Shown here in pieces: positions 3,001-64,000 of a stretch of DNA of 64,000 bases; the stretch's first letter is position 1; each line of letters starts with the position of its first letter. The notes under the pieces were generated by a model. The model saw only the letters and a list, made by a program, of their open reading frames with translations. It was not told the origin of the DNA and ran no database searches. The position numbers were made by a program, and so were the translations under genes. The DNA is from Dromaius novaehollandiae (Eukaryota; Chordata; Aves; Casuariiformes; Dromaiidae), in contig NC_088112.1 of the NCBI RefSeq assembly GCF_036370855.1, positions 19,460,469-19,524,468 on the forward strand. Direction: 5' to 3'.

Positions 3001-4332
3001 CTGAATTGACTCCCCTGGAGCTCATCTGGAGTCACGCTGGTGCAAACGCAGCTCTCCAGATTTAACACCCAGTTAACGGAGGCCATTCAGGCGCTATCGG
3101 ATGTCCTCCCCGCCAGGGCAAGCGCTTTGCAAGTGTCCGGTTCAGTGGTCTCAGAGCTGCTGCTCTGTTCAAACACGCGTCAGCAATAGTCCACGTGCAC
3201 CTTGGGCGCCCGCCATCACGGGATTACATTAGATATTGTGTTTTCAGATTATTTTAATTGAAGACTGTAATTCTAGATGTCATTAACCTATTGGCTCAAA
3301 ATCAACAGTCAACCTGCCCCTCCCAATTTATTTACACAGTTATTAAGCTGATCTTATGCCAGTTAGGGTCTGGCTCCTTGATTTTGAATATTTACGGTTT
3401 TTTTCTGGTTTTGTGACAACAGGAGAAGAAGGGAGAAGGAGAAGCTAGTGGTTCACTGGCACATAGTATTTCCATTGTACAGACCAAGGCCAGCAAGTAT
3501 CTGCAGAACACACTGATATAACTAAACTGATCCAGCAGAACTTGGATCTCAGCTCTGTTTCCTCCAGAGGATTTATTAATACCGACATCAATGCAAATAA
3601 TTCAGCCGGGTGTGCTCTGGCTCCATGGGACGAACCACACGTGCTTTGGGGCTGCGCGGGAATCTGGGCCACATCTGCAGCCGGCGCAGGCAGGAGCCGC
3701 GAGCAGTGTCCGATGCAGCCGGGCTCTCCGGGCCCCTTCCCAGGGGGGAGCAGGCACACGGGGCCTTTCCCTCTTTAAATTGATATATGCATGGCTTTTA
3801 CATCACAAGCCCCAAGCCCGTGTCCCGGGTGCCAGCCGTCTGCACGGCGCAGCGCGGTGTCGGCTGGCCATGGCGCGCGTGGCAGCACCTCCCATTCGCG
3901 TGCAAGTGCCAGCGTTGAGTTTTGCCAAGGCGTCTTCAAAGAAGGTGTTTTTAAGCATACAAAAGAGCTGGAGGCATATTTACTCCCCATACGCTTATTT
4001 TTAATTACAAAAGTAATTAGCCTCCTGCCTGTTGAGATGTAATAAAATGAATTTGCCAAAGACGGTAATATAAGCCTATTTCAGGTGAGCTGAATTAATT
4101 AAAAAAACTAAGTTATTCCAAATATAAAACGCACACAGAATTTAACCCAAAGCGATTTGAAACAGCCAGGAAATATGTTCTCAAGAGCAGCAGGGTAATT
4201 TTTACTTGGACTCTCCTAAAAAGGTTCTCAAAAATAGAGCTTCAGTGAATATATTCATGATCATTTGACAATTTTTCTAAAAAGAATTTTAAAATATTTC
4301 CAAAATAGTCTACACGCTTTGTTTTAGCCGTA
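1..4332. other. Intergenic, no gene recognised
   Basis: I see no recognisable exon, RNA gene or transposon on either strand. Open frames are at most about 150 codons and lack domain motifs or matching splice sites. A GC-richer part lies around 2400-2660. More AT-rich blocks lie at about 3230-3420 and 3940-4330, with TAATT-type words that homeodomain proteins can bind. In human, the next gene on this side of CXCL14 is SLC25A48, a mitochondrial carrier. I looked for carrier-type PxDxxKxR motifs among the open frames and found none. Confidence 0.6.
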
Positions 4333-4530
4333 CCTTGCAGGTTGCATGTTAGGAGTTAACTTGAGTCTCTTCTTCAGATCGTTTCTTACTTTGCATTTTG
4401 TTCACAGTGCTTTTTATGTTCTATTTCCTTATCTGTTTAATTAATTAATCACTTTAGGTGCTGTTAGATTCCCATCCAATGGAGGACTTCTGCTACTGGA
4501 TTTGACTGACTGAGCTGTATTGTTCTTTCC
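4333..4530 (+). repeat. 198-bp direct repeat, copy A
   Basis: This block matches 5332-5529 base for base at a constant offset of 999, with no insertion or deletion. By eye about 35 of 198 positions differ (roughly 82% identity), with about 26 transitions and 9 transversions. The first 120 bp are better conserved (about 90%). A 30-bp core at about 4420-4449, spanning a TTTCCTTATCTG word and a TAATTAATTAAT homeodomain-type run, is identical in both copies. Similarity stops sharply at both ends. There is no coding frame in common. It may be a locally duplicated regulatory element or two copies of an uncatalogued dispersed repeat. I do not recognise the family. Confidence 0.85.
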
Positions 4531-5331
4531 GAAAGAAAACATGTTCTAAAAGAAGTAAATTGGGTTTTTAATTAAAAAAAAAAACACACACGTTTTTGTG
4601 TTCTTTCCTTTTTGAAACTACTGAAAACTGGAATCATTCCTATCATTTGATCTGCCTGGAAAAAATTTTTTCAGCAATTTTTCAGATCTTTCAGCTAACT
4701 GAAAAAGTTGTTACATGTCAGCTCTAACCCTCTCTAGAGAATGTACTTTGATTTCATTAAGTAAAAAAAATCGAAGGAAAGCCACAGAAAGGCAGTCACT
4801 GCTTTCGCATGAGCTGAGAATCTGTCCCATTTTTGCTATAAATACGTGCGCAGGAATGTCACATCCACTTTCACATGCTAATGATAGTGTCATATTAATG
4901 CTGTGAAGTCACACTTGTGAGCTCCAGACTTAAATGTCACTTGGGTAAAAGGATTTCGAACAGAGCACACAAGTTTTCAAAACTTGTTTTCGGCTGCAGG
5001 ATGAGGAAAACGGACAGTGCTTCACACTTTTATTTTTGACTCCTCTGTCAATACTGACTAGCTGCGGCTTATCACATAACGCAGCTGGCGAGTATCCAAA
5101 ACCGAGCGAAACCAACCGGGAAAACCACCACTAATATTCCTGCAGTGGAATGATGAATTTTGATAATGAATATTCTAAGCTCCTCTGACATTTGCAGCCC
5201 TTGTTCCCAAAGTGGAGATGGATTTAAAAGACAAGCTGAGGATACTGAAGGTTTCCATCGCCATTTGAGCTGTCGCACTGAGCAAAACCATCTCACTACG
5301 TGAGTGCCAGGGTCCTGCAAAACCAGCTATT
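4531..5331. other. Spacer between the two 198-bp repeats
   Basis: The spacer is 801 bp of mostly AT-rich noncoding sequence and includes an A-run followed by ACACAC at about 4574-4591. No part of it resembles the sequence at the same offset beyond copy B, so the duplication is visible only in the 198-bp blocks. I see no gene. Confidence 0.6.
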
Positions 5332-5529
5332 CCTTGCGGGTTGCATCTTAGGAGTTAACTCAGGTCTCTTCTTCAGATCATTTCTTGCTTTGCATTTTGT
5401 TCGCAGTGCCTTTCGTGTCCTATTTCCTTATCTGTTTAATTAATTAATCACCCTAGGTGCTGTTGGGTTCCTGGCAGATGGAGGGCTGTAGCTCCTAGAC
5501 TGGCCCGCTCGAGCTGTATTGCTCTTTCC
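5332..5529 (+). repeat. 198-bp direct repeat, copy B
   Basis: This is the second copy of the element at 4333-4530, in the same orientation. Where the copies differ, copy B carries G or C against A or T in about 26 positions and the reverse in only about 7, so B is clearly GC-richer. Several differences are CpG in B against TpG or CpA in A. The central block containing TAATTAATTAAT (about 5439-5450) is unchanged. I see no target-site duplication flanking either copy and no poly(A) or simple-repeat tail, so a recent retroposon origin is not supported. Confidence 0.85.
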
Positions 5530-8500
5530 CAGAGCAGTGGGGGAGACAGCTCCGAGAGCTATTAATGCAGATTTGGCTCCTGCAGATGAGGCAGCTCCTT
5601 TGGGCATCTGAATTTTGACTGTTTCCTGTTATTCCCTTGATATTCCAAGAGAGAAGAGAGCTGTATTACAAAAGGGGTAGGGGTGGCAATAGGAACACGC
5701 TCAGCACCAAGCGTCTCAGAAACAGAAATTCAGAAGATGGAGCAAAAACAGCCCAGGAGAGACCTGCCCGCTGCGCAAAGCCCTCACGGGCATGGAAATC
5801 ACAGCCCTGGCATCGCTAACCTGCTTCACGCCGGGAACGCCGGGCCCCGACTGACCGACGACGGCAGGGGCTCTTGAAGCAGCAGCTCCCCCCACTCTAA
5901 AGCCAGCCCCAGCGCCCTCCAGCACCCTGCACTGGTGGGTCTCCGGTCTTGCCCCGAATCCGTGCCTCAGGGCAGTGGGATTTGGGCCTCGGAAATACCC
6001 CTTCCTGCAGCTACCCCACCTGCCTTCATATTCACCTCCATCACCCCCGGAAGGTGACTGGATCTGATATCCCGCTCCCAAAATTTACCTGCTGTTAGTC
6101 CATTCGACATCACCAAAATTAAGGCTATTTCTTTTTCACTTTGTGGGCTTGAAATTAGGCACCTCCATCTACATACAGACCTATAAAAGCATGGCCTGCT
6201 TTTCAGAGGCCCTCAGTACCACAATTAGTTTCCACATCAGCCCTCTAACTAACTTCAAAAGCAGTGGCTTAAGTACCTCTTAGCTGCCTCTCCCTTGCCC
6301 TGTTTGAGAAGGAATGCAAAAGAGAAGGGAAACAGCTGTCCATTTGTATAACAAAAACTGGTGCAGCAACTGTCCCTTGCCATATTTGCATGGACTTTTC
6401 CATGCAGAAAACTTTGCTCCTTTTCCGAGCAGCATGCCTGTTTGCCACAGCCAGTAGACAGTACTCATGCTCACACGCCAGCTCGCCCCGGTCCCCCCTG
6501 TATCCTGCAGCTCCTCGGGGTGTCTTAACGTGTCACCAGAAAACCGCGACGGAAGCACTGGCAGTGGGCGAGGTGTTTACATCTTCCGAGCCTTGAGCAA
6601 GGCCGAAAAAAGAAAAATGAACTCAAAATAGAGCTCGCACCTCACACAAAGGTGGGAGATATTCCTCGCTGCAATGTGGGAATCATCTAAAAGTGAAGAA
6701 CGGCCCAGATCTTTAAGGTTGGAACTAATCTCGTACTTCAACTCGGTAATCTAAGGCCATTAAATATTTCTACTGTCGGGATGCACATAAAGCAAATTAA
6801 TACCTGTTCAAATGAAAGGGATCATGCTGGGAAGAAGGTTAAAAATAAAAGAGAACAGAATATCAAGTGGGATTTTCTTTCCATTTTTATTCTCAGCTCT
6901 CCTTCTGCTAATGTGTTATTTCACCCTCAATACCTCTGACAATACCAGCTGCTTTGATCCCAAAGGCTTATTTGCTCCCTGACTCGTCAGCAAGTTTGCA
7001 ATAGCTTAAATAAACTCAGAAAGGTTCAAAGCCCAACGGAGGGATAAAACATACTTTAAAAAGACACCAAGTCAAGAAGGCATGTGTTCCTTAATTACCT
7101 TCCTGAAGGCTATATCTTTTCTCTTCCCCCCATGCCTCCTCCTCATCTACCTTCCTTCTGTTTCTTGGCTTAAATTAGACTGTGAGATCTTCTGGATAGC
7201 GAAAGCATCCTTCCTATGCAATTATACAATAGGCCGTAATCTTCTCTGGAGCCCTTGGGTGATCCTGTGACTAATTTTCCATCTGTTGTCAAGGATACCT
7301 GTTTGGTCCATTAACAAATAGCAAAACAAACAAAGCAAAAGGGCAGTTCACACATAGTGTATTACTTCAACTCTCCTCACTGCTCATTTCTCATCTCTGG
7401 AGACTTCTTGTAGAATGCAACGAGTATCTTACTCTTGTGCTAATGTCGTGGAGAAGCTGTGGACGATCACGACACGTCCAAACAAGTTACGGAAACCATG
7501 AAAACTGTTCTTATATACAGCAAAATTTATTACCTGTTGTATTTTGCTAGCAGCAGGATTTTGCCTGTCACAAGGTAAGAGGAGGAATAAGGAGATGCCA
7601 AATAAAGCAAAATATCACAGAAGTTGGAGTATCCTAAAGTTACAAATCACATGAACTGCCAGCGTTTCGTTCTGCATGTAGATAGTGGGAAGGAGGAACA
7701 AATATGGTAGAGGGGAATCTAGTTTTTTCAAGCATAACCAGAATTTTTTCTGTGATAGTTGTGAGATCAAAGCCATGTTTGGCCCTAATTTCTAAGCATC
7801 CCCTTTTCTCCCTTTTATGGATGGTGACAACAATACCGTTTCATCTACCCCCTGCAGATTTGTGCCATTTTCAGCAAGACTTCCTCAGGAATGAAATGCT
7901 ATGGTTATAAACAGAGAGTTCCCCAAGGTCTCTCTATTTCAAATGCCTCAAGTGAAGCTGCACAGTTTGGAAACATGGACTTCTTCAGCATTATCATCCT
8001 TGAAATGCCCAAGGAGGATTAAAGCTGAAAGAGAGCTGAGACTGCAACTTTCCTACTTAAGAAGGGAAAAAAAAATAAGAGCCAAATGTTGTGTTTGCTG
8101 TCAGCGCCGGAGCCCAGCTTTTTCTGCTCATCCTGCTTTATGCTTTCCCTGCTACGCAGGAGGCCAGGACATCGGCCACCACCATGCCACAGTCCCCATG
8201 CGACTGAGCTCAGCCAGCTGCAAGGAGCACAGAGAAGCGAAGTGCTGGCACACTGCTGCCCTCTGCAAACCCACCCACCGGCTCAGAATTTGGGGAATCT
8301 GGTTCAGATTAAAATAAATACCAACAATTTTCTCACTAGGAAATGAAGGACTCTAAATTTTGTTTACTGAACAGGCATGGTTTATCAATTTATAATCATT
8401 TGCTATTCAACCAAATTACTTTGCTCATACTGCTGAAGGAAGGCTGCATCCTCCCCTCACCTTCTTACCGGAGAAGGGGAACGATCTGCAGAGCTACCAA

Positions 8501-35997: not shown

Positions 35998-36061
35998 ATG
36001 AAGCTCCTGACAGCGGCTTTGCTCCTGCTGTTCATCGCCATGTGCTTAGCCAGCGCGGAAG
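35998..36061 (+). CDS. CXCL14: CXCL14 coding exon 1
   Basis: The exon encodes the signal peptide, residues 1-21 plus the first base of Gly22. The donor is G|GTGAGT at 36061/36062. The ATG is preceded by ACC. Confidence 0.95.
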
Positions 36062-39000
36062 GTGAGTTAGTTCATTCCACCTCTTCCCACCCAAACCTGC
36101 CTTCCCCAATTTTTCCCTTTCCCCGTAATCTTTGTTCGGCCTCGGACTAGACCCGGGGAGGATTTCGCATCCCACCGCACCCGGGGAAGGGTGATGCATT
36201 GACCCTGGGGCGCAAGGTAGCCGCAAGCTTTTTTTTAAAGGTAATTTTAAGTGACAAAGTTGTCCCGCTATTGCTAGCCAAGCAGCCCAAACGCACGGTC
36301 CGAGAGACCACAGCGCGGTCTCCCTTTTTCAGGAGCATGACTCAAATGTCTCCTTTAAATTGGTGGTGGTTTTCGTAGAAAATAGAGCAGACTTTAATTT
36401 GATGGGTTAGCATGAATTTCACCGAATTTACCAGTGTGTATTTTATGTATAAAAATGGCAAAAAAAAAAAAAGGCTTTTGAATGGCTGAGAAGGCATCAG
36501 AGCACCCGTGAGAAGAAAAAAAAATTAGAAGTGACTTCAAGTCCTACAAATTCTAATTGAGAAACAAGTGAAACGAGAAAATAACTAAGAATTGCATTTG
36601 CTTATTCAGTTTAAAGTGAGTTTGACTCTTTCATTTTGCTTCTGTTAAAAATAATTACATTAATCACAGCAGGTGCACTTTAAAAAGCATCATATTGGCT
36701 AAGCCTCCGAACGCGAGCCTCGGTGCTCTAAAACATTTCTCAGGGAGCTACTATATTTTTCTGGGATAAGAGAAAATATTACTGTTAAGCTCAACAGCAC
36801 TAGGAAATTCAGCTTTTCTGCCAAGGCTCACAAGATCGAACCGAAGCTCGTACGCACACGTATGCTGCCAGGGAAGGGACGCTTGGTATGCGGGAGGCTT
36901 TGCAGGCGCGTGAGTAAGTGCTTTCTCTTGTAGGAGTAAAGTGCAAATGTTCAAGAAAAGGCCCTAAAATACGATTCTCTAATGTACGGAAGCTGGAAAT
37001 AAAGCCGAGGTACCCCTTCTGCGTGGAAGAGATGATCATGTAAGTTTTACTACATTTTTTTCCTTCTTTTTTGCTTTCCTATCAGCTCAGTTGCATTACC
37101 CTACATTGCAAGTTCCCTCTTTGTTCTTCGGTTTTATCATGCCCTGCCATGCTGATTTCCTGCAATAACCATTTGCTATATTAGATGTAATAAGTGCAAA
37201 TCTGAACAAAAACCCAGCTATCATTTTTCAACATAGTTGCCTGCTCAGAGAAATACTTATGAAACAGATAGTAATAAAAGGCTAATCATTAGTTCAGCTG
37301 AAGATAGGGACCAAATTCTACTCCAAGCTGCCCGATATAAAATCCAGAACAATTTACTCAAGTTATTTGGGACATGCAGAGTAAACACAAGAGCAGGATT
37401 TGGTCCATGGTGGTTTCTGCAAGGAAGAGTTACCCTAACCAGTCAAATTTTTGCCTACACTGTGCCAAAGCAATCTCCTGGCATTTCATGGGATCACCTA
37501 GTGCAGAAGAAAACACTTTCCTCCTAGCCTCACCGCGAAGCGATGACTAACACTGCAGCGAAACCCCAAAGAGATGCAGTGAGAAGCCGAAATGAGGCAG
37601 GCAGGGGGATCTTTGACATCGCTGGTGACTGGTTCAAGAGAAGCGCTTTCCCCCCCATCTCAAATACGGCTGATCTGCGATTCTTTTCCTGTCCTGTTTT
37701 GGATACCTTAAGATCGCACACAAACCACCAGCCCACCCACGGGACCGAGTAACACCCTGAAGGGCAGATCAGCCAAAACTGCACCCAACTGTGTCATCTA
37801 AGAGGGGAAAAATGGGTCCCGAGAGAGTGTGCTCTCAGCTGACCAGCACAAACAAGGAGGCACTGATCCTGCCCGCTCCGACATGAACGGCCGGACTCAG
37901 CAGACAGCAGGGACAGAGCGTGCTGGCCTCACTCGAGACCCTCCACGTTTACACCAGCATAACCAAGAGCAGCATTTAGCCCGGGGAGCATCGCGCCCGT
38001 CCCTTTGCAGCCAGAACCGGCCAGCAGCAACCCGACCAGATCATCTGCATCTGGAGCATCCCCGTCTGAATCGGTCCCACGAATCAGCCTGCTGCCGTTT
38101 TACTTTGTTTGCTCTGACCTTTAAATAGCACAAGTATGGTACAGGGGGGCACCAACTCTTCTGATCCCGCACCAGCCATTTGGGCGCAAACACGTCAAGC
38201 AAACATCTTAAATAAACAGCACTGACCTCTTGCAGGGGATTGAATCACCACCGTTTTGCCCTCTGCCTGGGAAGGAGCCCCAGGCGACGCAGCGCCGATA
38301 TCTGTGTCTGCGTCCCACCCCCTGGAAAGGGCACCCTCGTGCTCGCTCCCGGGTGCAGCCGGGCGGTTTCCTATCTCATGCCAATCACCTGGCCTTAACA
38401 AAAGCAGCGGAAGCGCTGCAGCAGCGTGAAAGCAATGCAAGAATTTGCTGCTCGAGATTTCCCTCCGTGCCTGGAAGGCTCGACTGTTGTCTGGGAAGCG
38501 AGCGGGAGCGTTTCCCCCAGAGCAGGATGCCAACAGAGGCTGCATGGCAAAGCGTTGTCAGGAAAACAATAACGGGCTTTTCTAGGCTAGGTCTAGGAGA
38601 GACATCTGCTCAAAAGCAGCTGGGCCAGGCTTGGCGGCCAAGAGGGAGGGGAATGCACAGGGAGAAAATAAACCTCATTAATGCAACTTTTTGCTTTCAA
38701 TCAGAAAGTCAGGAAAGCATCCGAACTGCTTCAGCCCGCGCCGAAATGCCTTGCGAGAGCGGGCTGCTGTTCCAGCCAGACTTGCTGGGCAGCTATGCAA
38801 ATTCAGAGTAATGTTATTCAGGAGAAGGGAGATGCTCCGGGTTTGCACCCAGCTCCTGGGACAGAGCTGTCCCACAACTCTCGCGTTGCCGGGAAGGATC
38901 GCTCCTGCTTACGCCCACGGGGAACAAGGGCCAGGGGAAGGCTCGTACACCGGCATCGGTGCCTTTCCAGGCTACCACGGTAGAGTCTGAAGTCAGTACT

Positions 39001-42000: not shown

Positions 42001-44582
42001 ACCCCAAGCGCCAGAACACGGTGCGGCTGCTGAAGTGGTACCGAGTATGGAAAGAGAAGGGCAGGTAAGCGTCCGTGCATGCGGTGGGACATCCCTCCGC
42101 TTCTGCGGGCAGAGAGCACAGCCAGGTCCGTCCTCGCCGCGAACGGCAACGCTTCCCGCGGGACGGCTCGGTCGACAGGGCTGCTGCCGCGACCGTGCCG
42201 GAGGAAATGCCGGACAAAGAGCCAACATCCCCCAGCGCCAATTAGCACATCCATCTCAGGGTCTGTTTTAAACGATCTCAGCAGGAGGGGGGAAATCTTG
42301 GTGGCAAGCTAGACAGCTAACGGTGTTCAGACTTGGAGACCCCCTGTTTTGCATACTGCAAATGCACCGTTCAGCACAGAGGACTTGTTTCGCTCCTTAA
42401 TCGCAATTATAAATGGATATTCTTGATGCAGTTTCTTTCCCTCCACATGCAGGGCTCAGGATTAGGCTGTTATGGCTATAAATAGTAATTATTTTCTGTT
42501 AGACTGTTTATCAGCTGATGTTCTCACTTACATGTGCTCACCTCCCTTTTATGGTTAAAAAGCCAGGATAAAAAGCTAAATTACTTCCACAGTCACACGT
42601 AAGAAAGCCAGAGCTGGGAAGAGACTGCCCTACTTCAGGTCACATTTTAATCATAACATCTCAAAGCCTTCAATTTCTGACAACAGATCTTTGCCAGTTT
42701 TAACCACCATATCATTCCCAGGATAACAGCAACTTGCTGGTAAGATGCACTGCCATCTTCTCCCTTGCATGGAGGGGTTTTGTTCATTTGGTTTTTTAAA
42801 TAAACACACGCCCATCATAACTAGAAGAGAAATACGAATTCCTGTTGGTTAATGCTGGTGGTGATGTTTCCATCTATAATTAAGGGGAGCTGCCCAACTC
42901 CCACCACCTCCCAGGGAGAACCACGTGTTTCTTCTGAGCCTTTAAAGTCCCTTGAATATTGGGGTAAATCTTTCCGTGAATCTCGGCAGAAATAATGAAT
43001 AGGAGAAGCAAGGCAGGGAGGTGGGAACGATCTAGCTTCCCTCAATCCACAGCTGGGCACTAAAAGATGTTGGGAAGAAGGAAGGGTATTTTACTCCGAG
43101 CATAAACATGCCCTGGGAGATGCAATGAGAAGTCACCCCTGGCACTGGGTCCAGGGCCGTGCCCCAGACTCAGGCACCCGCGTGCAGCCTTGTCGGCCTG
43201 CCGGGAAGCGCCTGGGGCTGCGGGAAGCCCTCCAGACCCCTCCGTGGGGAGGCCACCCACGTGAGACCCAGCGTTAGCCAACGTCCAGGAAAGAGCATCT
43301 GCACGAAGCACAACCCAGCTCCATCCTTCTGCAACAAAGAAAGCCAGCTCAAGGTTCCCCTGTCATCCCGAGGGGCGACAAGGACCATCTCTGCTGCAGA
43401 GGTGGCCAGGGGACAGGAGAAGCAGAGAAGGGACAACGAGCCCAGGCCAGCTGGGGCGGCCCCGCAGCCTCGGCTACCAGCCTGGGGTGTGCAAACCAGA
43501 GGCAACGCAACCCCCGGCATTTTACTTCTTTGCCTCTGCCCAGCCCTAAGCCTCTCCTGCACTTCCCTGCCCTAAGCCTCTCCTGCACTTCCCTGCATTT
43601 GCAATATTCATGACTGCATTTCATATAGCAGTTGCCTTAATAAACAAAGCAGCACGCAGTCAGCACCCTGCTTCAGGAAATCCCTTCCAGCTTCAGAGCT
43701 GGAGGAAAGAAGTCATGTGAGGGCGAGGCATCTCTCAGGGCCAGGAGACCCAGAGAGGGTTGCTGCTCTCCTCCTGGCCTCCTCCATCCATCATCACACC
43801 CCTTTGCAGCGAGGGACAGCCAGGGAAACGGCTACCCGCAAGGCTCGTTGCAATCAAACGGACAAAGAACCCAAATTAAAACTAGTCCTCACAAAAAATA
43901 AAATAAAATAAACAATTTGTCAGTGCCTTCAGTGCTAGCTGTGCCCACCCTGAGCGCTGAATTGCTCCCCAGGAAAAGCCAACGACTTTTAAAGCCAAAT
44001 GCAGCACAAACATGAGTCTTCTCCCCGAAATAGCATTGCCCCTCATTTTCCCCATGCTGGGGAAGGCCACTTTCACCCGAAGAACCTGTACAGCCAGTTT
44101 TTTTCAGCAGTTTTATGGAAAACAGTACTGTCAGGTTGTCTTCTCAGGATGCAAACTAGATTAATATTATTCAAAACATGTCAGGTATTCCGAATATAGA
44201 ATATATTCTAATTCAAATGCAAAGCTCGTGATATCCTTCAACATTTGTATGTGAAGTAGGGATTTTCCAGTGGTTAAAGTGTATTATTGGATGCAGATTT
44301 CCTAATCTTACGTGTCCCAGTAATCCTGAGCACGGTCGAGTCTGTTGCCCCCAGCAGACCCAAAAGGAGCCGAGAGGGCAAATTCAAAGCCCCTGCTCCG
44401 ACCCACGTCACAGGTAGGAACCTGGCCACTCCGCTGAAGTCATTTACTTCCCAATTTACTTAAGCAAAGTTTAAAAATTTGGCTTCTAGTTTTTAATGAT
44501 CTGGAGGGGGGCTGTTTCGCTCCCTGTTAAAATAAACAGCCTGCTCTTGGCTTTCCTTCTCTCCAGGGTTTACGAAGAGTAG
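35998..44582 (+). CDS. CXCL14: CXCL14, C-X-C motif chemokine ligand 14 (complete, 4 exons)
   Basis: This is a secreted CXC chemokine (also called BRAK) that attracts monocytes, dendritic cells and other cells and is expressed in epithelia. Coding exons are 35998-36061, 36934-37039, 41954-42064 and 44567-44582, all with GT..AG introns in phases 1, 2 and 2. Joined, they give 98 residues. Residues 1-22 form a signal peptide ([12 protein letters not shown] hydrophobic core, SAEG end). The mature 76-residue protein starts [14 protein letters not shown]. The CXC cysteines are C25 and C27, with partners C51 and C71. There is no ELR motif, and the C-terminus WKEKGRVYEE is diagnostic for CXCL14. Human CXCL14 has a 77-residue mature chain. 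This one is one residue shorter in the loop between the last two cysteines, where the human VSRYR stretch is replaced. The start at 35998 gives the canonical signal peptide. The human upstream in-frame ATG is not present. Confidence 0.97.
36062..36933 (+). other. CXCL14 intron 1
   Basis: This is an 872-bp phase-1 intron, GTGAGT to TTGTAG. It contains an A-run near 36460-36471. I see no alternative exon or repeat element. Confidence 0.9.
36934..37039 (+). CDS. CXCL14: CXCL14 coding exon 2
   Basis: The exon encodes residues 22-56 plus two bases: the CXC motif (C25, C27), the basic RKGPK stretch and C51. The acceptor CTTGTAG ends at 36933 and the donor is AT|GTAAGT. Reading on past the donor would meet a stop at once (ATG TAA), which supports the splice. 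Confidence 0.95.
37040..41953 (+). other. CXCL14 intron 2
   Basis: This is a 4.9-kb phase-2 intron, GTAAGT to TTGCAG. It is mixed-composition noncoding DNA. Frames up to 193 codons (38230-38811, +) show no domain. I see no mobile element or RNA gene. Confidence 0.85.
41954..42064 (+). CDS. CXCL14: CXCL14 coding exon 3
   Basis: The exon begins by completing Ile57 and runs to the second base of Arg93. It carries C71 and the C-terminal helix ([16 protein letters not shown]). The acceptor is CCCTTGCAG and the donor is AG|GTAAGC. Confidence 0.95.
42476..42485. promoter_or_regulatory. MEF2-type site in CXCL14 intron 3
   Basis: CTATAAATAG matches the MEF2 consensus YTAWWWWTAR in full and lies in an AT-rich block (about 42460-42530) that stands out from its surroundings. 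A ten-base match can occur by chance, and an enhancer role is inference. Confidence 0.3.
43544..43595 (+). repeat. Exact 26-bp tandem duplication
   Basis: Two adjacent identical 26-bp units, each CCCTAAGCCTC...CTTCCCTG, lie at 43544-43569 and 43570-43595. Complete identity suggests a very recent slippage or duplication event, or an assembly artefact. Confidence 0.95.
44567..44582 (+). CDS. CXCL14: CXCL14 coding exon 4 (terminal)
   Basis: The coding part is 16 bases. It completes Arg93 and adds Val-Tyr-Glu-Glu and TAG. A pyrimidine-rich acceptor (CTTTCCTTCTCTCCAG) precedes it. The same exon continues as the 3' UTR. Confidence 0.95.
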
Positions 44583-63668: not shown

Positions 63669-64000
63669 ATGCCCGCGGAGGCGGCGAGCAGCGGCGGCGC
63701 GGCGGAGCCGCCGGGAGCCCCGCGGGAGCGGCGGCGGCGGCGCGGGCGGGCGCGGGCGCGCACCGAGGCGCTGCTGCACACGCTGAAGCGCAGCCGGCGG
63801 GTGAAGGCCAACGACCGGGAGCGCAACCGCATGCACCACCTCAACGCCGCGCTGGACGAGCTGCGCAGCGTGCTGCCCACCTTCCCCGACGACACCAAGC
63901 TCACCAAGATCGAGACGCTGCGCTTCGCCTACAACTACATCTGGGCGCTCTCGGAGACGCTGCGCCTGGCCGAGCAGTGCCTGCCGCCGCCGCCCGCCCG
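63669..64000 (+). CDS. NEUROG1: NEUROG1, neurogenin 1 (5' part; truncated by window end)
   Basis: This is a nuclear proneural bHLH transcription factor. It pairs with E proteins, binds CANNTG E-boxes and switches on neuronal differentiation, for example in cranial sensory ganglia. There are 110 codons before the edge and no stop. Residues 1-20 are Ala/Gly/Pro-rich. Residues 21-31 form a basic [11 protein letters not shown] run. The bHLH spans about residues 43-98, with the basic region [12 protein letters not shown] (E51 contacts the E-box), helix 1, loop [10 protein letters not shown] and helix 2 [18 protein letters not shown]. The DDTKLTK loop and AYNYIWAL point to NEUROG1 rather than NEUROG2 or NEUROG3. 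The N-terminus is about 50 residues shorter than the human protein. The ATG at 63669 follows a splice acceptor. A second in-frame ATG may arise at the splice junction. The remaining roughly half of the protein lies outside. Confidence 0.95.

What the first reader, a model, noticed from the sequence alone, without database searches (positions are those of the whole stretch)
4333..5529. Ungapped 198-bp noncoding element duplicated exactly 999 bp apart
4333-4530 and 5332-5529 align over 198 bp with no indel at about 82% identity by hand count, with a fully identical 30-bp core containing TTTCCTTATCTG and TAATTAATTAAT. Flanks and spacer show no similarity. At 18% divergence neutral DNA would normally carry indels, so either both copies are under constraint (a duplicated enhancer upstream of CXCL14) or both belong to an unrecognised dispersed family. 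Differences are strongly biased: copy B has G/C where A has A/T about 26 times against 7 the other way.
Basis: partly seen in the sequence, partly recalled or inferred. Interest (0 to 1): 0.75.

Follow-up and report, generated by a model that had tools for sequence, protein, structure and literature searches.

The report
Locally duplicated noncoding element upstream of CXCL14
A roughly 210-letter noncoding DNA element occurs as an old pair 999 bases apart, far upstream of the chemokine gene CXCL14, and only those two copies were found in this genome, so it is most likely a duplicated gene-control element rather than a common repeat, although cross-species conservation could not be tested here.

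Summary
The 26:7 bias is exact and the identical core is 32 bp. Similarity stops sharply at both ends. The block lies about 30.5 kb 5' of the CXCL14 start codon, which is on the + strand; NEUROG1 lies beyond CXCL14. A dispersed repeat family is therefore unlikely. It has stops in all six frames, no Rfam match and no unusual RNA fold. Differences are unevenly spread (scan P 0.008 over 210 bp, 0.001 over 198 bp), which suggests partial constraint. Lack of indels alone is weak evidence (P 0.01-0.39). Best reading: an old local duplication of a homeodomain/GATA/ETS-type enhancer element, kept in both copies. Conservation in other species, age and enhancer activity are untested. Nothing categorically new.

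The parts
4326..4535 (+). copy A of the duplicated noncoding element (38% GC, in flanks of 24-26% GC over 100 bp)
5325..5534 (+). copy B of the element (47% GC, in flanks of 49% GC over 100 bp)
4421..4452 (+). 32-bp core identical in both copies, copy A: GATA-like, ETS-like and overlapping TAATTA homeodomain-like sites in register (motif consensuses recalled)
   Evidence: only 2 genomic places within 3 mismatches of a 31-bp pattern from it
5420..5451 (+). the same 32-bp core in copy B
4333..4465 (+). slow part: 14 differences in 133 bp; includes POU-like ATGCAAA and SOX-like AACAAW sites kept in both copies
4466..4511 (+). fast part: 20 differences in 46 bp, still without a gap
4536..5324 (.). 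spacer of 789 bp, no detectable similarity to the sequence beyond copy B or before copy A
5325..5563 (.). 7-bp direct repeat AGCTATT at 5325-5331 (ending right where the 198-bp block of copy B begins) and 5557-5563: a possible but unproven insertion footprint of copy B
   Evidence: a match of 7 bp or more occurs in 8.6% of 20,000 randomly placed blocks, 2.7% with the left member abutting a start limit
35998..37040 (+). first two coding exons of CXCL14: signal peptide from ATG 35998, chemokine exon reaching about 37040 (the last exon is probably near 44565)
63669..64000 (+). NEUROG1 (neurogenin-type bHLH), cut by the window end
   Evidence: the name neurogenin rests on recalled motifs, the best solved-structure match is NeuroD1

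Best explanation
A roughly 210-bp noncoding regulatory element, most likely a transcription-factor-binding enhancer module, was copied once into a place 999 bp away, in the same orientation, upstream of CXCL14. Both copies have since kept their homeodomain/GATA/ETS core and several other blocks. They probably act together as a redundant or dosage-raising pair on CXCL14, or on another gene of the domain such as NEUROG1. Shown: two copies, no gap, single locus, sharp ends, uneven divergence, shared in-register motif matches, no coding or structured-RNA signature. Inferred: that it is an enhancer, which gene it serves, that both copies are under selection, and the age. If evolution were neutral, rates of 1.0-1.9e-9 per site per year (recalled) give 60-113 My; constraint would make it older.
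For: Only 2 genomic places with each of 4 queries (for both patterns the reversed control gave 0). Divergence is uneven: 20 of 46 differ in 4466-4511 against 20 of 164 elsewhere; permutation P 0.008 (210 bp) and 0.001 (198 bp), corrected for window choice. Core with GATA-, ETS- and stacked TAATTA-like sites, plus POU- and SOX-like sites, at the same positions in both copies: 11 of 26 recalled patterns, several overlapping, are shared in register. Stops in all six frames of both copies, no Rfam match in the window, copy A folds worse than most shuffles on both strands (z 1.71 and 2.11). CXCL14 in chick has a reported FGF-responsive otic enhancer, and that paper names homeobox and forkhead proteins as possible cooperators from motif enrichment (PMC6902270, passages seen); its coordinates were not seen, so it may not be this element.
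Against: No other species could be compared, so constraint is inferred from two copies only. Absence of indels is not rare under neutrality if indels are 2-5% of substitutions. The longest identical run alone is weak (P 0.027 and 0.038). The 26:7 G/C bias follows the GC of each copy's flanks, which fits drift to local composition or biased gene conversion without function. Gene conversion between copies could also keep one part more alike. Of 26 recalled motif patterns 15 are not shared in register, 14 of them in neither copy, among these AP-1, which the otic-enhancer paper reports near its tested enhancers, and forkhead. Motif matches of this length occur by chance, and no chance control was run for them.
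Confidence: 0.55

Rival explanations
1. A non-functional old local duplication: about 210 bp was copied by a repair, template-switching or insertion event, and both copies have drifted neutrally, each towards the composition of its surroundings.
For: Sharp ends with unrelated spacer and flanks; composition of each copy follows its flanks; zero indels has P 0.09-0.39 at indel:substitution ratios of 0.05-0.02. A 7-bp direct repeat around copy B could be an insertion footprint (chance 2.7-8.6%).
Against: Uneven divergence within the block, permutation P 0.008 or 0.001; P(0 indels) about 0.01 at a ratio near 0.10, the approximate ratio of gap to nucleotide parsimony tree length in avian nuclear genes (PMC4009869, passage; its likelihood estimate is lower).
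Confidence: 0.28
2. A very old tandem duplication of a unit of about 1 kb, of which only the constrained 210 bp can still be recognised; the rest has decayed past detection.
For: The 999-bp spacing would be the unit length; same orientation; constraint would explain the clean, gap-free survival.
Against: No residual similarity in the rest of the unit on either side: none of 8 local-alignment tests (4 region pairs, 2 scorings) beat shuffles (lowest P 0.15) and the two anchored 200-bp extensions did worse than most of 60 shuffles (P 0.77, 0.85). Needs much greater age than the block's own divergence suggests.
Confidence: 0.12
3. Two fragments of an undescribed or extinct dispersed repeat family that happened to insert near each other.
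For: Sharp ends, as for insertions; a possible 7-bp target-site-like repeat at copy B, though such a match arises by chance in 2.7-8.6% of random blocks.
Against: Each of 4 searches of the own genome found only these two places; no such repeat at copy A (best flank match 5 bp, which 70% of random blocks reach). The search passes over very common words, so strongly diverged relatives are not wholly excluded.
Confidence: 0.05

Closest known systems
Duplicated conserved noncoding elements (dCNEs) of vertebrates (PMC2781166, passages seen)
   Same: Noncoding, similar copies retained after a duplication, near developmental genes
   Different: Those described there lie near paralogous genes and about two thirds predate an early whole-genome duplication; this pair is local, 999 bp apart at one locus, and its conservation is untested
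Clustered redundant ('shadow') enhancers (recalled)
   Same: Two similar modules expected to act on one gene
   Different: Activity not shown; shadow enhancers need not share sequence, whereas this pair does
Chick Cxcl14-associated FGF-responsive otic enhancer (PMC6902270, passages seen)
   Same: Enhancer assigned to the same gene in a bird; homeobox motifs suggested among FGF-induced ear enhancers
   Different: Coordinates not seen, so identity with this element is unknown; that study stresses AP-1 motifs, which neither copy has

Membership tests
Dispersed repeat / transposable element family | many genomic copies | tested here: not met
   2 places, both at this locus, with each of 4 queries; very common words are skipped by the search
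Dispersed repeat / transposable element family | target-site duplications or a diagnostic tail | tested here: inconclusive
   copy A: best flank match 5 bp, off the ends; copy B: AGCTATT at 5325-5331 and 5557-5563, the left one abutting the 198-bp block, the right one 22 bp past the end of the 210-bp block; chance 8.6% for any 7-bp match, 2.7% with such a left position (20,000 random blocks)
Conserved noncoding element | no coding capacity | tested here: met
   stops in all six frames of both copies
Conserved noncoding element | conservation across species above neutral rate | not testable with these tools
   the host has no relatives in the genome search (note); within the pair, uneven divergence P 0.001-0.008 is indirect support only
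Duplicated CNE | exactly a few copies retained after duplication | tested here: met
Enhancer | drives expression; open, acetylated chromatin | not testable with these tools
   no functional data in the tools
Structured noncoding RNA | match to a known family or unusually stable fold | tested here: not met
   0 Rfam matches in the window at gathering thresholds; copy A fold z 1.71 and 2.11, weaker than shuffles, on the two strands; copy B was not folded

The most novel reading that the evidence does not exclude
A single-locus enhancer for CXCL14 (or NEUROG1) was duplicated about 1 kb away in a bird ancestor and both copies have been held under selection since, with spacing inside the module preserved even where bases are free to change (46 bp, 20 differences, no indel): a lineage-specific rewiring of chemokine expression that can be dated and tested.
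Probability: 0.3. Interest if true: 0.5.

Novelty: new member of a known kind. Interest (0 to 1): 0.35.

Why it matters
If both copies are constrained, this is a clean natural case of a local enhancer duplication with both copies kept: two modules, one locus, no other copies found in the genome. That permits a direct test of whether redundancy, dosage or divided labour keeps duplicated enhancers. If neutral, it is an ordinary old small duplication.

Tried and rejected
Rejected: a coding exon (198 is 66 codons, but stops occur in all six frames); a structured RNA; a dispersed repeat; CpG decay as the whole cause of the G/C bias (7 of 35 differences lie in a CpG-containing triplet in the 198 bp, 10 of 40 in the 210 bp); a third copy in the window (profile of the two copies: next match E 0.12; one search ran the same search but its head was cut from view).

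Led nowhere: a neutral indel calibration inside this genome. The 12 reverse-transcriptase loci fetched (L006-L017) gave 18 same-strand pairs of 300 columns or more out of 66 possible, all 97.95-99.89% identical, in coding sequence ranked for open frames; 11 gap openings per 865 mismatches is not a neutral measure. Queries L004-L017 match nothing in 20 10-kb stretches taken at even steps plus the window (0 rows). All-against-all in those 264 kb at E up to 1e-8 gave 3 pairs of 120 columns or more (shorter ones were dropped uncounted): this block, one identical 173-bp pair, and one 72% pair with 5 gap openings in 143 columns; too few to calibrate. The ratio used comes from PMC4009869 (passages). 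PMC4563830 passages gave no usable ratio. Paper searches for CXCL14 with conserved noncoding, enhancer, birds, SLC25A48 or NEUROG1 (0, 225, 1, 2 and 6 papers, of which 0, 20, 1, 2 and 6 listed) showed no paper whose title or start of abstract is about this element; some searches were background searches. All of this covers the held open-licence library only.

Full report
Observation. The two stretches are real and stand as described. There are 26 sites where A has A/T and B has G/C, and 7 the other way. The longest identical run is 32 bp. In the 64-kb window no other repeat of 60 bp or more is reported, and a profile of the two copies finds no third (next match E 0.12). The similarity ends abruptly: in 30-bp bins on the same diagonal, matches are 19-29 of 30 inside the block and 3-11 outside. 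In 8 local-alignment tests of spacer and flanks (4 region pairs, 2 scoring schemes) none beat dinucleotide shuffles (lowest P 0.15), and gapped extension over 200 bp from either end did worse than most of 60 shuffles.

Place. The window is part of a 1.47-Gb assembly of 271 contigs. CXCL14 is on the + strand: the signal-peptide ATG is at 35998 and the chemokine exon at about 36918-37040 matches Pfam IL8 (E 3.9e-6) and, best of 2 solved-structure matches, small inducible cytokine B14, that is CXCL14 (2hdl, E 4.4e-14). A bHLH gene with neurogenin-like residues starts at 63669. The block therefore lies 30.5 kb (B end) to 31.7 kb (A start) 5' of the CXCL14 start codon. The host is probably a palaeognath bird: C1 is 219.5 Mb, C2 170.3 Mb and C3 131.8 Mb, and contigs C33 and C35 share four chemokine match pairs, three of them with equal E-values, at offsets of 13.70-13.79 Mb, as a weakly differentiated Z/W pair would. 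This is inference, not a named identification.

Copy number. Copy A as query finds 2 places at E up to 0.001, copy B finds 2 places at E up to 10, a 31-bp core pattern with up to 3 mismatches finds 2 places, and a second pattern from the 5' part finds 2 places; all are this pair, and the reversed controls of the patterns give 0. The uniqueness of the spacer and flanks is not known: that search did not complete.

Kind. All six frames of both copies hold stops. There is no Rfam match in the window. As RNA, 197 and 195 of 200 shuffles fold at least as well as copy A on its two strands; copy B was not folded. DNA-level function is what remains, if there is function. Of 26 recalled motif patterns, 11 (several overlapping) occur at the same positions in both copies: GATA-like, ETS-like, overlapping TAATTA/TAAT homeodomain-like, PBX/HOX-like, POU-like and SOX-like. 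Fifteen are not shared; E-boxes occur only in B, and the other 14, AP-1 and forkhead among them, in neither (no chance control).

Constraint. The best evidence is uneven divergence: 20 of 46 positions differ in 4466-4511 against 20 of 164 elsewhere in the 210 bp, with permutation P 0.008 corrected for the choice of window, and 0.001 for the 198-bp limits. The identical run alone is weak (P 0.027 and 0.038). One study of avian nuclear genes puts the gap tree length near 10% of the nucleotide tree length by parsimony and lower by likelihood (PMC4009869, passage). My own calibration failed. The G/C bias follows each copy's surroundings: 100-bp flanks are 24-26% GC around A and 49% around B. Drift to local composition or biased gene conversion explains it without selection.

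Origin and age. Sharp ends with unrelated spacer point to a small inserted duplication rather than a 999-bp tandem one, unless the latter is very old. A 7-bp direct repeat, AGCTATT, ends exactly where the 198-bp block of copy B begins (5325-5331) and recurs at 5557-5563. It could be the footprint of the insertion of copy B, which would make A the older copy, but 8.6% of 20,000 randomly placed blocks show a 7-bp match and 2.7% one in a comparable left position, and the right member lies 22 bp beyond the similarity. It is a lead, not a result. K2P distance is 0.227; at recalled avian rates of 1.0-1.9e-9 this means 60-113 My if neutral, more if constrained.

Verdict. This is most likely a locally duplicated regulatory element, with both copies kept, at a gene for which an enhancer has been reported in chick (PMC6902270, passages only; coordinates not seen). 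The neutral-duplication rival stays serious because no other species could be compared. Duplicated conserved noncoding elements are a known kind (PMC2781166, passages), so this would be a new member rather than a new kind.

Noticed in passing
L027:1231-1403 and 2576-2748 (G000:C2:30000001-30010000): An identical 173-bp direct repeat 1345 bp apart in another stretch of the same genome; not examined.
   Followed up: no
G000:C196:1357944-1420352: Eight reverse-transcriptase matches in the same direction spaced about 8842 bp apart, like a tandem array; similar spacing series appear on C115 (7560-7625 bp) and C4 (about 5258 bp).
   Followed up: no
G000:C33 and C35: Two large contigs share four chemokine match pairs, three with equal E-values, at offsets of 13.70-13.79 Mb, as sex chromosomes with a large shared region would; about 22 of the 150 listed reverse-transcriptase matches (counted by eye; 150 of 7100 candidates were scored) fall in the first 15 Mb of C33.
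   Followed up: no
window 63804-63998: The neurogenin-like bHLH reads RMHHLN where the motif searched for, recalled as usual for neurogenins, is RMHNLN; could be a real substitution or a sequencing difference.
   Followed up: no
window 5325-5331 and 5557-5563: 7-bp direct repeat AGCTATT flanking copy B, possibly a target-site duplication; chance 2.7-8.6%.
   Followed up: partly
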